A DNA stretch of 36,142 nucleotides from Limnofasciculus baicalensis BBK-W-15 (GTDB lineage: Bacteria > Cyanobacteriota > Cyanobacteriia > Cyanobacteriales > Coleofasciculaceae), in contig NZ_JAMZMM010000005.1 of assembly GCF_024178385.1 (NCBI RefSeq), positions 1 through 36,142 of the forward strand, given 5' to 3'. Below are positions 18,136 to 36,142 of this stretch, in pieces. The position numbers and the translations under genes are program-made. The number at the start of each line of letters is the position of its first letter. Within the stretch, counting starts at the first letter, position 1. The notes beneath the pieces are model-generated. The model ran no database searches. It was given only the letters and a program-made list of their open reading frames with translations, and was not told the origin of the DNA.

Positions 18136-18167
18136 GGCATACCATTGAAAATGATGAAAGCTGTGAG

Positions 18168-18289
18168 GGGAGCATCCCACTTTGACAAAGATACTCGTTT
18201 TTTGACAAAGTTTTTACCCCCCCAGCCCCCCTTGTCAAAGGGGGGAGCAAGAATACAACCTACATTTCTTCCTTGCTCGGGATGCTCCC
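18168..18289. mobile_element. MITE-like element, 122 bp, with 11-bp terminal inverted repeats and 8-bp target duplication
   Basis: The ends are GGGAGCATCCC (18168-18178) and its exact complement GGGATGCTCCC (18279-18289). The 8-bp word GCTGTGAG flanks both sides (18160-18167 and 18290-18297), as expected for a target-site duplication. The interior carries the C-rich/G-rich hairpin CCCCCCTTGTCAAAGGGGGG and no gene. A second, diverged copy in opposite orientation lies in menC at 25193-25313. It must be moved by a transposase supplied elsewhere. Confidence 0.8.
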
Positions 18290-18375
18290 GCTGTGAGTTT
18301 GCACTCGGCTCCCAATCTGCGTCATAATCAAGAAGTGTAAATATTCAGATCAGTTTTGATAAATCATCAACAAAA

Positions 18376-23805: not shown

Positions 23806-24708
23806 ATGACTACAAGTTTGGTTCAAGAATCTAACAGAAAACTGTGGCTAGCAGCAATTAAGCCACCGATGTATAGTGTTGCTGTCATCCCAATTTGGCT
23901 GGGAACAGTGGTAGCTTTTACCGAAACTGGCACAATTAAAATTGGCATATTTTCCACATTCTTAATCTCAGCTATTTTAATTATTGCTTGGCTCAATCTC
24001 AGTAATGATGTTTTTGATTCAGATACAGGTATCGATAAGAATAAAGCCGAGTCTGTGGTAAATTTAACGGGGAATCGAAGCCTGATTTTCTGGTTGAGTA
24101 ATTTATTTTTAGCAGGCGGGATTCTGGGGATATTTGCGATCGCATTGTGGCAGCGAGACTGGACTGTAATCCAACTTGTCCTACTCTGCTGTGCCCTTGG
24201 ATACAGCTATCAAGGACCGCCCTTTCGCTTAGGTTATCAGGGTTTAGGTGAGATTATTTGTTTTGTGACTTTTGGTCCCATGGCTGTTGCTGCCGCTTAT
24301 TATTCTCAGACACAAACTTGGTCTTTCAACTATCTAGCAACGTCAGTTATTGTGGGTATTACCACTAGTATAATTTTATTTTGCTCCCATTTTCACCAAG
24401 TAGAAGATGATATTGCTGCGGGTAAAAAATCGCCTATTGTCCGTCTGGGAACAAAAGTAGGGGCTAATGTATTAGCCTGGTTTTCTGGTGGTATTTATGT
24501 TCTGATCGGTTTATTTGTCCTATTGGGTATTTTTCCTATTTGGACATTATTAACTTTCCTCAGTTTACCTTTGGCGATTCAGTTAGTGCAGTACGTTGGG
24601 CAATATCACGATCAACCACCAATGGTGAGAAGTTGTAAGTTTATTGCTGTGAAACTTCATTTTTTGAGTGGTTTGTTATTGGGATTGGGGTTTGTTTTTG
24701 GTTATTAG
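23806..24708 (+). CDS. menA: 1,4-dihydroxy-2-naphthoate prenyl/phytyltransferase MenA
   Basis: Membrane UbiA-family enzyme that attaches the phytyl (or other prenyl) chain to dihydroxynaphthoate in phylloquinone synthesis for photosystem I. The 300-residue protein has about eight to nine hydrophobic segments. The first Asp-rich site is LSNDVFDSDTGIDKNKAESV (NDxxDxxxD). The second is HFHQVEDDIAAGKKSPIVRLG. Also typical are KPPMYSVAVIPIWLGT near the N-terminus and YQGPPFRLGYQGLGE. It opens the plus-strand run menA-menC-hicB-like-menE. Specificity for phytyl versus other diphosphates is inferred from the organism type. Confidence 0.94.
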   Translation: MTTSLVQESNRKLWLAAIKPPMYSVAVIPIWLGTVVAFTETGTIKIGIFSTFLISAILIIAWLNLSNDVFDSDTGIDKNKAESVVNLTGNRSLIFWLSNLFLAGGILGIFAIALWQRDWTVIQLVLLCCALGYSYQGPPFRLGYQGLGEIICFVTFGPMAVAAAYYSQTQTWSFNYLATSVIVGITTSIILFCSHFHQVEDDIAAGKKSPIVRLGTKVGANVLAWFSGGIYVLIGLFVLLGIFPIWTLLTFLSLPLAIQLVQYVGQYHDQPPMVRSCKFIAVKLHFLSGLLLGLGFVFGY

Positions 24709-24739
24709 TTGTTAGTTATCGATCGAATCACAATAGTTT

Positions 24740-24760
24740 GAACAGGCAAGATGCCTGTTC
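24740..24760. repeat. 9-bp hairpin between menA and menC (GACAGGCA family)
   Basis: GAACAGGCA (24740-24748), loop AGA, TGCCTGTTC (24752-24760). Sister of the hairpin at 21201. It sits in the 164-bp menA-menC gap with a degenerate TGCGTTA copy near 24798 and CAAACAAC units. It may reduce read-through from menA into menC. Confidence 0.6.
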
Positions 24761-24872
24761 TACGATAATAGGACTTAGGCAAAGCTTTTATATTTAGGGT
24801 GTGTTAGGCTTCTTCAGGCAGGACTATTCTAATTATATATGGTGTAGCTGCGTAAGTCCTAACAAACAACAA

Positions 24873-25973
24873 ATGACAAACAACAAACAACAAACAACCT
24901 CTAAATTTCAATTTCGTCCTTACCAGCGGCGTTTTCGACAACCTCTAAAAACGAGTCACGGAGAATGGAAAGTGCGGGAGGGAATTATCATAAACCTGAC
25001 AGATGAAACAGGAAAAGTTGGTTTAGGAGAAATTGCCCCAATTCCCTGGTTTGGCTCGGAAACCTTAGTAGAAGCATTGGATTTTTGCCAGGAGTTACCG
25101 TCAGAAATTACCGCAACTGATATTTTCTCTATCCCAGCTAAACTACCCGCTTGTCAATTTGGATTTGAGTCGGCTTGGTGGGGAATGGAGAATGGAGCAT
25201 CCCAAGAAGGCAAAAACTCAGGTGATATTCTTGCTCCCCCCTTTCACAAGGGGGGTTGGGGGGGTGAAAACTCTGGCGACAAACAAGTATCTTTGCCAAA
25301 ACAGGATGCTCCCGTCAGGAGTAGGGAGTCGAATTCCAATCCACCTCTTACCTCTAACCAATCACCTCTTACCTTTAGTTATCTTTTACCAACAGGAGAG
25401 ACAGCTTTACAGTCATGGCAAACAGCTTGGGATGAGGGATATAGTACTTTTAAATGGAAAATTGGTGTGGGTAGCTTTGAGGAGGAAATTAAAATATTTG
25501 ACCAGCTTATTAAAATGCTACCAAAATCGGTAAAATTACGCTTGGATGCCAATGGAGGATTAACTTGGGAAGAAGCAAATTCTTGGTTGAAAATTTGCGA
25601 TCGCGCTGGAATTGTTGAATTTATCGAACAACCACTACCACCAGAAAAATTTCAATCTATGTTGACAATGTGTACGGAATATGATACAGCAATCGCTTTA
25701 GATGAATCAGTGGCGACAATCGATCGGCTAGAGGATTGTTATCAGAAAGGATGGCGAGGGATTTTTGTCATAAAAGCCGCGATCGCAGGTTCTCCCAAAC
25801 GCTTATTTCAGTTCTGTCAAGAGTATAATATTGATCCGGTATTTTCTTCGGTTTTTGAAACTTCGATTGCCAGACAGATGGCTTTACAGTTGGCAGGGAA
25901 ATTATCACATCGCGCTGTTGGTTTTGGGGTGAATCATTGGTTTGTAGATGATGATGGTATAGATTTTAGATAG
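24873..25973 (+). CDS. menC: o-Succinylbenzoate synthase MenC with a large repeat-derived insert
   Basis: Enolase-superfamily enzyme dehydrating SHCHC to o-succinylbenzoate. The ATG at 24873 is favoured; it lies in a CAAACAAC repeat and codes for about ten low-complexity residues before the true start of the fold (KFQFRPYQRRFRQPLKTSHG). Catalytic features are all present: K194 and K196 in FKWKIGVG, metal ligands in LRLDANGG, FIEQPLP and ALDESVA, and the second-half lysine in FVIKAAIAG. Length 366 is about 50-60 more than usual. The extra stretch is residues about 105-167, between the N-terminal capping domain (FGFESAWWGM) and the barrel (FSYLLPTGE). It comprises a MITE-like copy (about 107-147) plus ACCTCTTACC repeats. 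menE follows after a small HicB-like gene. Confidence 0.92.
   Translation: MTNNKQQTTSKFQFRPYQRRFRQPLKTSHGEWKVREGIIINLTDETGKVGLGEIAPIPWFGSETLVEALDFCQELPSEITATDIFSIPAKLPACQFGFESAWWGMENGASQEGKNSGDILAPPFHKGGWGGENSGDKQVSLPKQDAPVRSRESNSNPPLTSNQSPLTFSYLLPTGETALQSWQTAWDEGYSTFKWKIGVGSFEEEIKIFDQLIKMLPKSVKLRLDANGGLTWEEANSWLKICDRAGIVEFIEQPLPPEKFQSMLTMCTEYDTAIALDESVATIDRLEDCYQKGWRGIFVIKAAIAGSPKRLFQFCQEYNIDPVFSSVFETSIARQMALQLAGKLSHRAVGFGVNHWFVDDDGIDFR
25193..25313. mobile_element. MITE-like element copy inside menC, read in frame
   Basis: The ends GGAGCATCCC (25194-25203) and GGATGCTCCC (25304-25313) are the same inverted termini as the element at 18168-18289. The interior matches its reverse complement closely, including TATTCTTGCTCCCCCCTTT, the G-run hairpin and AAGTATCTTTG. 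It encodes about 40 residues (ILAPPFHKGGWGG) without a stop. A target duplication is not visible, perhaps because other repeats were added on both sides. Confidence 0.8.
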
Positions 25974-25989
25974 ATTTGGGATAACCAAG

Positions 25990-26145
25990 ATGTTACAGTC
26001 TCTTGTACTAGAGTATTGGTATGATAATGGTTGGTTTGTTGGTCGTCTTAGAGGAATTCCTGGTGTATTCAGTCAAGGGCAAACTCTAAGTGAGTTAGAA
26101 GATAACATTCGTGACGCTTACAAGCTAATGATTAATGAAATTTGA
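25990..26145 (+). CDS. Small HicB-like antitoxin-type protein
   Basis: A 51-residue frame beginning MLQSLVLEYWYDNGWFVG, then RLRGIPGVFSQGQTLSELED and NIRDAYKLMINEI. This is the partial RNase H-like fold of HicB/UPF0150 proteins (usual pattern: acidic or aromatic sheet, DGWYVA, PGCFTQGxT, EALxNIxEA). HicB proteins neutralise HicA mRNA nucleases. There is no HicA gene beside it and no DNA-binding extension, so this is a solitary copy. It sits 16 bp after menC and overlaps the menE start by 11 bp, so it should be translated in the same operon, possibly coupling menE translation. Confidence 0.75.
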   Translation: MLQSLVLEYWYDNGWFVGRLRGIPGVFSQGQTLSELEDNIRDAYKLMINEI

Positions 26146-27634
26146 ATATAACGTTTTTGAACCATTAAATTATCTAAAGCAGCGTGTTAGCGAAGATTGG
26201 CTGATTGGTTATGACAGTAACCAGTTTAACTACCTTGTCAAGGAATTTTTAGGAAAATTTACCCAATTATCACTAGAAGGAATACCGCCAAAAATCCTCC
26301 TTGCGGAATCAGATCCTTGGCGTTTTTTGGCTGCTTTTATCGCAGCAGTTGCTGCTGATTGTCCAGTTTTCCTTGGTAATTCCAATTGGGTAGAAAGGGA
26401 ATGGGAAGAAGTTATTGATTTAGTTAAACCTAATTTAGTTTTAGGAAAGGGAATTGACTTAGGGATAACAGAGGCGAGAAACCTGTGTTACGGGATTGGG
26501 GAAGATACAATAACTAATAACCAACAACTAATAACTAACAACCAACAATCAAGAATCATGATTCCCACAGGCGGCTCTTCGGGAAAGATTCGCTTTGCTA
26601 TCCATAGTTGGGATACATTAATGGCATCGGTAAGTGGGTTTCATCAATATTTTGACTGCAAACCCATTAATTCTTTTTGTGTTTTACCACTGCATCATGT
26701 TAGCGGTTTGATGCAATTTATCCGCTCTTTAACTACTGGTGGAAGATTCGCGATTTTGCCATTTAAAGCCTTAATCGCTGGGGAAGGAAGAGATATCAAT
26801 CCATCAGAATTTTTCATTTCTTTAGTTCCCACTCAGTTGCAGAAATTACTAAATGCTGGTGCGGCTGAATGGTTATCTCGCTTTCAAACAGTACTTTTAG
26901 GAGGAGCAGCCCCTTGGGAGTCTCTGCTAGAAGAAGCGAGAAGCTATTCCATCCGATTAGCCCCGACTTACGGGATGACAGAAACTGCTTCTCAAATTGT
27001 TACTCTTAAACCCGAAGCTTTCCTGGCAGGTAATAATAGCTCTGGACAAATTCTGCCTCATGCTAAAGTCACAATTTGCAGTAATACAGGAGAAATTTTG
27101 GGAGTAAATGAGACAGGAATTGTGACTATCGAGGCAGATTCTTTGGCTGTCGGTTACTATCCTGTTGAGGTGAAAGATAAGGATAATTTCTCCTCACACC
27201 AATCCCATATAACCGAAAACAATATTAAGCCCACATTCCAAATCCCAAATTTACAATCGGATGATTTAGGATTTTTTGATTCTGAAGGTTATTTAACTAT
27301 AGTTAGTCGTCGCAGTCATAAAATTATTACAGGTGGAGAAAATGTCTTTCCGGCGGAAGTGGAAGCGGCAATTTTAGCCAGCCAACTGGTTACAGATGTT
27401 TGTGTAGTTGGATTGGCCGATAGTTATTGGGGTGAGGTGGTTACAGCAGTTTATGCACCTAATTCTCCCCAGGTTTCTTCTGATTTATTGCAAGAGACTA
27501 TTACTGATAAATTATGCAAATTCAAGCATCCTAAATATTGGATACCTGTTGAAGTATTGCCTCGTAATAGTCAAGGTAAAATTAATTACCAGGAAATCAA
27601 ACAAGTTGCATTAGCTTGTTTATCTAAATTATAG
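26135..27634 (+). CDS. menE: o-Succinylbenzoate-CoA ligase MenE with repeat insert before the P-loop
   Basis: ANL-family adenylating enzyme that activates o-succinylbenzoate to its CoA thioester for naphthoate ring closure. Key motifs: P-loop PTGGSSGKIRF (144-154), LPLHHVSGLMQFIRSL, APTYGMTETASQIV (A5), DLGFFDSEGYLTIVSRRSHK (A7/A8) and the catalytic A10 lysine in NSQGKINYQE near the C-terminus. At 499 residues it is a little longer than usual. Residues about 123-140 (TITNNQQLITNNQQ), just ahead of the P-loop, are written by an AT-rich repeat. The start overlaps the small HicB-like gene. menB, menD and menH are not in the window. Confidence 0.93.
   Translation: MKFEYNVFEPLNYLKQRVSEDWLIGYDSNQFNYLVKEFLGKFTQLSLEGIPPKILLAESDPWRFLAAFIAAVAADCPVFLGNSNWVEREWEEVIDLVKPNLVLGKGIDLGITEARNLCYGIGEDTITNNQQLITNNQQSRIMIPTGGSSGKIRFAIHSWDTLMASVSGFHQYFDCKPINSFCVLPLHHVSGLMQFIRSLTTGGRFAILPFKALIAGEGRDINPSEFFISLVPTQLQKLLNAGAAEWLSRFQTVLLGGAAPWESLLEEARSYSIRLAPTYGMTETASQIVTLKPEAFLAGNNSSGQILPHAKVTICSNTGEILGVNETGIVTIEADSLAVGYYPVEVKDKDNFSSHQSHITENNIKPTFQIPNLQSDDLGFFDSEGYLTIVSRRSHKIITGGENVFPAEVEAAILASQLVTDVCVVGLADSYWGEVVTAVYAPNSPQVSSDLLQETITDKLCKFKHPKYWIPVEVLPRNSQGKINYQEIKQVALACLSKL
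26507..26549. repeat. TAACCAACAACTAATAAC repeat read in frame in menE
   Basis: AT-rich CAACAACTAATAAC/ACCAACAA units, the same type that fills gaps at 10458, 17655 and 21635, sit inside menE. The translation is Asn/Gln/Thr-rich (TITNNQQLITNNQQ). Most bases of the upstream and downstream gene have normal codon use, so the insertion boundaries are clear to within a few codons. Confidence 0.8.
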
Positions 27635-28154: not shown

Positions 28155-28350
28155 TTATAGCAACAGCCACAGCGGTTAGGAGATTCTCAGCTAGTAAATT
28201 CTAACAATTGGCTCGAAGCCAATTCTCCTCAGCGCATTGGCGACTGCGATACTTCCCCATCCCATCCTCTCCCCTATCCCCTATTTACAAATAATACCTC
28301 ACTGTAGTCACTACCCGACTTTTCTTAGCACGTCAGGAAGATTTTAAGAA
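28155..28350. repeat. 196-bp segmental duplicate carrying a fossil 3' end of the permease gene
   Basis: This segment matches 31982-32183 over nearly its whole length, from TTATAGCAACAGCCACAGCG to GATTTTAAGAA, with scattered differences and small gaps. In the other copy the last 66 bp are the true 3' end of the KimA-type gene. Here the same stretch (28285-28350, minus strand) reads FLKSS, stop, RAKKSRVVTTVRYYL, so it is a dead tail. The rest contains the CAATTGGCTCGAAGCCAATT hairpin and the GCGGTTAGGAG repeat. Confidence 0.85.
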
Positions 28351-31981: not shown

Positions 31982-32183
31982 TTATAGCAACAGCCACAGC
32001 GGTTAGGAGATTCTCAGCTAGTAAATTTTAACCATTGGCTCTGAGCCAATTCTCCTAAGCGCATTGGCAACTGCGATACTTCCCCATCCCTTCCACTTCC
32101 TGTCCCCTATCCCTTATTTACAAATAATACCTCACTGTAGTCACCACCCGACTTTTCTTAGCGCGTAAAGAAGATTTTAAGAA
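31982..32183. repeat. 202-bp segmental duplicate overlapping the permease 3' end
   Basis: Partner of 28155-28350. It covers the region downstream of the KimA-like gene and its last 66 bp (32118-32183). Because this copy holds working coding sequence joined to its gene, it is the likely source and 28155-28350 the derived copy. It carries ATTGGCTCTGAGCCAAT, a perfect small hairpin, and the GCGGTTAGGAG repeat. Confidence 0.85.
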
Positions 32184-35899: not shown

Positions 35900-35956
35900 T
35901 TAAAATTCCGGCGACCATAAATCAACAATAGCTACCTCAAAACCTGTTACCCTTCC
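35900..35956 (-). pseudogene. Fossil of the Uma2 gene 3' end with an internal deletion
   Basis: The reverse strand ends GFEVAIVDLWSPEF, stop, exactly the C-terminus of the Uma2 protein at 28383-28934. Directly upstream, GTTACCCTTCCT matches a point 312 bp further inside that gene (28741-28752). The two parts are joined at AACCTG, a word present at both places in the intact gene (28424-28429 and 28736-28741). Flanking bases before the stop (CTATTATCTATTAACCAT) also match, so downstream sequence was copied as well. Confidence 0.85.
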
Positions 35957-36142
35957 TACTGCGCGGACTAATGAACAATTAATGGGTTTCATAACCCGCG
36001 CAGGCGGGTTTTGTCTGTCTAGACGCGGTTTCAACCGCCAGTCTGAACAAGCCTTGGCGATTGGAAATCGCGGCTACACAAACCAAGTCCTACTGCGCGG
36101 ACTAATGAACAATTAATGGGTTTCATAACCCGCGCAGGCGGG
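35955..36142. repeat. 54-bp direct repeats, 134-bp period, running off the window end
   Basis: Identical 54-bp copies lie at 35955-36008 and 36089-36142, both from CCTACTGCGCGG to GCGCAGGCGGG. The 80 bp between hold GTCTGTCTAGAC, a GCGGTTTCAACCGC hairpin and TTGGCGATTGGAAATCGC. The second copy ends at the window edge, so more units may follow. Two copies with a long, palindrome-rich spacer do not make a CRISPR array. Confidence 0.85.

What the first reader, a model, noticed from the sequence alone, without database searches (positions are those of the whole stretch)
25193..25313. The same MITE-like element is translated inside menC
The copy in menC shares ends, interior and hairpin with the element at 18168, in opposite orientation, and adds about 40 residues without a stop between the cap domain and the barrel. 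All enolase-type catalytic residues remain. menC is needed for photosystem I quinone, so the enzyme is probably functional with a mobile element as part of the protein. 121 bp alone would break the frame; an 8-bp duplication would restore it, although none is visible now.
Basis: partly seen in the sequence, partly recalled or inferred. Interest (0 to 1): 0.85.

Follow-up and report, generated by a model that had tools for sequence, protein, structure and literature searches.

The report
Translated MITE inside cyanobacterial menC
A 121-letter mobile DNA element sits, still in frame, inside the gene for a quinone-synthesis enzyme of a cyanobacterium, and related copies are read through as protein in about twenty other genes of this genome and its sister species, because with the 8 letters it duplicates on insertion it adds exactly 43 amino acids.

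Summary
The element (25193-25313) belongs to a roughly 60-copy MITE family with ends GGGAGCATCCC and 8-bp target duplications. Its likely parent is an ISAs1-family insertion sequence, of which one relic was found. 121 + 8 = 129 bp = 43 codons, so a full-length insertion never shifts the frame. The menC copy belongs to an older subfamily found almost only inside genes: lnt, lpxB-like, arnT-like, a PKS, an AAA ATPase and others here; cobN, a Wzy_C protein and others in the sister genome. All 15 such genes read the only open frame of six. Eight younger in-frame insertions exist. Relatives show empty sites. This menC is the only one in the genome, keeps all catalytic residues, and is predicted to fold with the insert as a disordered loop. 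In other genera the same MenC linker holds different repeats, so it is a hotspot. Inserts shared by the two species show almost no synonymous divergence (2/51 fourfold sites against 196/569 in the host genes), which is unexplained and suggests constraint on DNA or RNA. It works like Rickettsia palindromic elements but is unrelated in sequence. Translation is inferred from frames, not measured.

The parts
24867..25973 (+). menC (o-succinylbenzoate synthase); ATG at 24867, the frame is open from GTG 24801
   Evidence: NF002739 and TIGR01927 over cut-off; only menC over cut-off in the genome; KxK, D, E, D, K residues invariant in a 47-sequence alignment
25193..25313 (+). 121-bp MITE copy of the older, gene-borne subfamily, translated as GASQEGKNSGDILAPPFHKGGWGGENSGDKQVSLPKQDAP
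25193..25203 (+). left terminal inverted repeat (TGGAGCATCCC; family consensus GGGAGCATCCC)
25303..25313 (+). right terminal inverted repeat (AGGATGCTCCC)
25236..25264 (+). G/C core C6-N8-G6-TT-G7 (hairpin, possible intrastrand triplex motif), the part frozen between orthologous inserts
   Evidence: RNA fold of the element z = -3.1; 1/107 differences in the core against 32/211 in the rest of orthologous inserts; triplex motifs in cyanobacteria: PMC4666352
25180..25193 (+). heptamer-like repeat left of the element (GGGGAAT GGAGAAT)
   Evidence: sequence; heptamer runs at the same place in menC of other genera
25318..25331 (+). heptamer-like repeat right of the element (GGAGTAG GGAGTCG)
   Evidence: sequence
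25342..25376 (+). two copies of CACCTCTTACCTYT, the rest of the menC linker
   Evidence: sequence
18168..18289 (-). intergenic copy of the younger subfamily (122 bp)
18160..18167 (.). left 8-bp target duplication of the intergenic copy (GCTGTGAG)
18290..18297 (.). right 8-bp target duplication of the intergenic copy (GCTGTGAG)

Best explanation
The stretch is a non-autonomous MITE, derived from the ends of an ISAs1-family insertion sequence, that landed in the flexible linker between the cap domain and the barrel of MenC and is translated as part of a working enzyme. Insertion adds 121 bp plus an 8-bp duplication, 129 bp or 43 codons, so frame is always kept. Survival then depends only on orientation and phase (one open frame of six in this subfamily) and on landing where the protein tolerates a loop. 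Shown here: the family, its ends, TSDs, frame statistics, empty sites in relatives for other host genes, a parental IS relic, catalytic residues kept, and a predicted fold with the insert disordered. Inferred: that the protein is made with the insert and is active, and that the menC target duplication has decayed.
For: About 60 copies in the genome; about 25 perfect 8-bp TSDs. All 15 genes with the older subfamily use its single open frame. Length is 1 mod 3 in 21/21 genic against 10/40 other copies, p = 5e-9. Empty sites in arnT-like, lnt, lpxB-like, PKS, PMT and C755 orthologues. The MenC insert falls where 2OZT/3H7V have a 9-residue linker. AlphaFold2 pLDDT is mostly over 90 for the domains and under 50 for residues 115-147; the best PDB match is cyanobacterial OSBS, TM 0.86. 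Single menC in the genome. Parental relic: TIR, ISAs1 transposase C-terminus (NF033564, 80.1 bits over cut-off 70) and a right end identical to MITE positions 48-121.
Against: No TSD is visible at menC (5/8). The sister species has a different repeat in its menC linker, so the exact empty menC site cannot be seen. No proteomic or enzymatic data. No intact parental IS is in the assembly.
Confidence: 0.87

Rival explanations
1. The insert is present in the gene but removed before the protein works: RNA splicing, ribosomal bypassing over the hairpin, or proteolytic trimming.
For: Strong hairpin; amino-acid changes in the insert are not suppressed, with 28 synonymous differences where 41 are expected; nucleotides of the core are frozen between orthologues.
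Against: An insert skipped at the RNA level or in translation would not need an open frame, yet all 15 genes use the one open frame of six, none has a stop, and length is always 1 mod 3. Trimming of the finished protein is not excluded by this.
Confidence: 0.05
2. MenC is a dying gene: the insertion has damaged the enzyme and the frame is open only by chance or youth.
For: The linker is long and of low complexity; no activity data.
Against: Only menC in a 99% complete genome; all invariant catalytic positions kept; dN/dS 0.22 against the sister species outside the insert; menA, menC and menE are all open in the neighbourhood.
Confidence: 0.04
3. The linker is an ancestral, homologous feature of cyanobacterial MenC that merely resembles a repeat.
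For: Many cyanobacterial MenC have an extended, variable linker here.
Against: The sequence matches about 60 dispersed copies with TIRs and TSDs; relatives have short linkers or unrelated repeats; the element has no clear match in 57 of 59 genomes.
Confidence: 0.02
4. For the slow synonymous evolution only: gene conversion among copies, rather than constraint on DNA or RNA, keeps the orthologous inserts alike.
For: Copies within the older subfamily are close to each other (87% mean column identity), and the lnt pair does not group together in the tree.
Against: Each orthologous pair keeps private variants (arnT internal 39-nt duplication, lpxB CCGAGATTAT, lnt CTTCCTCC), which conversion would tend to erase; no sign of conversion by the younger subfamily.
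Confidence: 0.3

Closest known systems
[quoted passage not shown]
   Same: Palindromic repeat of 100-150 bp inserted in frame into many unrelated, conserved genes, with a conserved peptide, tolerated by the proteins
   Different: Unrelated sequence and phylum; here the insertion chemistry is visible (TIRs, 8-bp TSD, ISAs1 parent), and the arithmetic 121 + 8 = 3 x 43 explains frame keeping
ISAs1-family insertion sequences and MITEs derived from them
   Different: No intact autonomous copy seen; many copies lie inside ORFs in frame
Coxiella QMITEs (PMC5896051) and enterobacterial RU elements found intragenically (PMC2759123, abstract only)
   Same: MITEs that add residues to proteins
   Different: The QMITE cases are mostly gene ends or hypothetical proteins; here the middle of conserved enzymes, including orthologous insertions kept across two species
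[quoted passage not shown]
   Same: The element's core is C6-N8-G6-N2-G7, and the MenC linkers of other genera hold similar cores or G-rich heptamers

Membership tests
MITE | Terminal inverted repeats | tested here: met
   GGGAGCATCCC at both ends, 66 matches to the end pattern against 0 in the reversed control
MITE | Target-site duplication of fixed length | tested here: met
   8 bp, about 25 perfect cases in the genome; not visible at menC itself
MITE | Short, without transposase, many dispersed copies | tested here: met
   121 bp, about 60 copies
MITE | Ends shared with an autonomous element | tested here: met
   Met only with a truncated relic: C504:9441-10101 with the same TIRs, an ISAs1 transposase piece and a right end identical to positions 48-121
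ISAs1 family (as parent) | ISAs1 transposase between the TIRs | tested here: met
   NF033564, 80.1 bits over cut-off 70, on the remaining C-terminal piece
ISAs1 family (as parent) | Intact autonomous copy that could mobilise the MITE | tested here: inconclusive
   The transposase piece has one further, decayed match in the draft genome and none in the sister genome
Rickettsia palindromic elements | In-frame insertion in many unrelated conserved genes | tested here: met
   15 genes with the older subfamily in two genomes, plus eight younger insertions
Rickettsia palindromic elements | Sequence relationship with RPE families | tested here: not met
   A pattern scan of 84,980 species genomes found the peptide only in MAG UBA11153; RPE sequences were not compared directly, so this is indirect
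o-Succinylbenzoate synthase (MenC) | Family score and enolase-type catalytic residues | tested here: met
   NF002739 464.8 bits across both halves; K184, K186, D215, E242, D267, K291 (alignment numbering of the window protein) invariant in 47 sequences
o-Succinylbenzoate synthase (MenC) | Enzyme activity | not testable with these tools
   needs an assay

The most novel reading that the evidence does not exclude
The translated copies are held by selection on their nucleic acid rather than on their amino acids: the G/C hairpin or triplex core of the inserts in the lnt, lpxB-like and arnT-like genes is frozen between two species whose fourfold-degenerate sites otherwise differ at about 34%. Genes would thus carry a mobile element whose DNA or RNA structure has acquired a role while being read through as a disordered loop.
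Probability: 0.35. Interest if true: 0.8.

Novelty: new variant of a known kind. Interest (0 to 1): 0.64.

Why it matters
In-frame mobile repeats are a known oddity of Rickettsia; this shows the same outcome from an identifiable IS lineage in free-living cyanobacteria, with the reason for frame keeping laid bare (121 + 8 is divisible by three). It gives natural experiments in where enzymes tolerate 43 extra residues, and a MenC linker filled with different repeats in several genera. The near absence of synonymous change in inherited inserts poses a clear open question: gene conversion, or selection on DNA or RNA structure.

Tried and rejected
A homologous ancestral linker was rejected. A second menC was looked for and not found. 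RNA bypass or splicing was considered and judged unlikely, because frame and stops would not then be under selection. Purifying selection on the amino acids of the insert was tested and not found: synonymous differences are, if anything, too few. Independent insertion of orthologous copies in the two species was rejected by the shared internal duplication in arnT. Candidate autonomous elements at G001:C308, G001:C411 and G000:C432 had no transposase-like ORF between the TIRs on inspection of the translations. Two key papers, on RPEs and on Anabaena IS elements, are not in the library, so prior reports in cyanobacteria may be missed.

Full report
Setting. The window lies in a cyanobacterial draft genome (G000, 6.6 Mb, 762 contigs, 99% complete). 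Its only congener among the genomes searched matches the public MAG 'Cyanobacteria bacterium UBA11153' (G001). menA, menC and menE lie in a row at 23806-27634 (menA and menE named from sequence).

Observation. The inverted repeat 18164-18274 / 25207-25317 is real. The menC copy spans 25193-25313 and is open in the menC frame. The copy at 18168-18289 is flanked by GCTGTGAG on both sides.

What the element is. About 60 full or partial copies occur in the own genome, with ends GGGAGCATCCC and an 8-bp target duplication that is perfect in about 25 copies. A 661-bp relic at C504:9441-10101 has the same left end, then the last part of a transposase (PF01609; NF033564 ISAs1 family over its cut-off), then a right end identical to MITE positions 48-121. 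Longer elements of about 300-360 bp with the same ends also occur. The family is therefore most likely a MITE lineage cut down from an ISAs1-family IS. No intact parent is in the assembly. Among 59 genomes only this genus has clear copies, with one borderline 22-residue match in G017; a scan of 84,980 species genomes found only UBA11153.

Why it can sit in genes. 121 + 8 = 129 = 3 x 43, so a full-length insertion with its duplication never shifts the frame. In the older subfamily one frame of six is open, in the main younger consensus three. Insertions inside genes, older subfamily: in this genome menC, lnt, an lpxB-like gene, an arnT-like glycosyltransferase, a PKS, C755, an AAA ATPase (contig end) and, less surely, C450; in G001 lnt, lpxB-like, arnT-like, a Wzy_C protein, C43, a TPR protein and cobN. 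All 15 use the same, only open frame. Host families were checked by HMM where models exist; the lpxB-like and cobN names rest on sequence resemblance recalled, not on a model. Younger in-frame insertions: a PMT/TPR protein, second copies in C745 and C755, and C223, C541, C698, C85 and C494. Length is 1 mod 3 in 21/21 genic copies and 10/40 others, p = 5e-9; a caution is that copies without indels against the consensus are 121 by construction, and which copies count as genic was judged from the ORFs.

Insertion proven by empty sites. Orthologues without the insert: arnT-like in eleven genomes, lnt in five, lpxB-like in three, PKS in G005, PMT in G001 and three others, C755 in G001, the Wzy_C protein without the element in the own genome and three others. 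Shared by both species and hence older than their split: lnt, lpxB-like, arnT-like, the last with a shared internal 39-nt duplication.

menC in particular. In the relatives the linker between SAWWxE and (S)YLLPTG is 48-240 nt, always in frame. The long ones are filled with different sequences: G-rich heptamers, C6/G6 palindromes, a 17-bp perfect palindrome. For G001, G003, G013, G018, G029 and G055 parts of the linker recur elsewhere in the same genome (the list was cut, so this is a lower bound). So this linker is a hotspot of repeat insertion, and the own linker itself looks layered: heptamers, then the MITE, then another direct repeat. The insert lies where the Thermosynechococcus enzyme 2OZT/3H7V has a 9-residue linker. 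AlphaFold2 gives confident domains and a disordered insert, and Foldseek returns cyanobacterial OSBS first.

Age and selection. The gene-borne copies of the older subfamily form one group apart from the younger copies, the TPR copy of G001 excepted; only C30 and the contig ends C75/C116 are apparent non-coding members. One reading is that genes preserved an old wave whose intergenic copies have decayed. Amino-acid changes in the insert are not suppressed: 28 synonymous and 122 non-synonymous differences from consensus, 41 synonymous expected. Yet in the three orthologous pairs fourfold sites differ at 2/51 against 196/569 in the host genes (p = 5e-7), and the G/C core at 1/107 against 32/211 elsewhere in the insert. 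I have no settled explanation. Gene conversion is the rival, with private variants of each pair speaking against it.

Known precedents. In-frame palindromic elements are known from Rickettsia, and MITE-derived residues from Coxiella and others (PMC10969869, PMC5896051). No report of such translated elements in cyanobacteria came up in the open library, which lacks two key papers.

Limits. Nothing here measures translation or activity. The menC target duplication is not visible. Only two genomes carry the family, so selection tests rest on three orthologous pairs.

Noticed in passing
26496-26560: A 14-nt/7-nt short tandem repeat lies inside the menE ORF (26135-27634) and is translated as TITNNQQLITNNQQ; the same peptide repeat is in cobN of the sister genome (L153).
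   Followed up: partly
24859-24896: The likely menC start codon (ATG 24867) lies inside an AACAAACAACAAA-type repeat, so the N-terminus MTNNKQQTTS may itself be repeat-derived.
   Followed up: no
L131 (G000:C270:7909-8028): A 120-bp copy near the end of a fatty-acid-desaturase-like gene does not keep the frame and seems to replace the C-terminus.
   Followed up: no
28155-28350 and 31982-32183: Two roughly 200-bp direct repeats, 89-92% identical, 3.8 kb apart in the window.
   Followed up: no
35954-36008 and 36088-36142: Identical 55-nt direct repeats at the window end with a GCGCAGGCGGG tail.
   Followed up: no
L242:442-1102 (G000:C504): ISAs1-family relic, the only clear trace of the parental IS seen.
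   Followed up: partly
L091 (G000:C655 PKS): The same PKS carries a further palindrome-like insert (LTSPPAPLLQGEGSK...LTPPFPGKEGGLGGLG) before the ACP domain.
   Followed up: no
   Followed up: no
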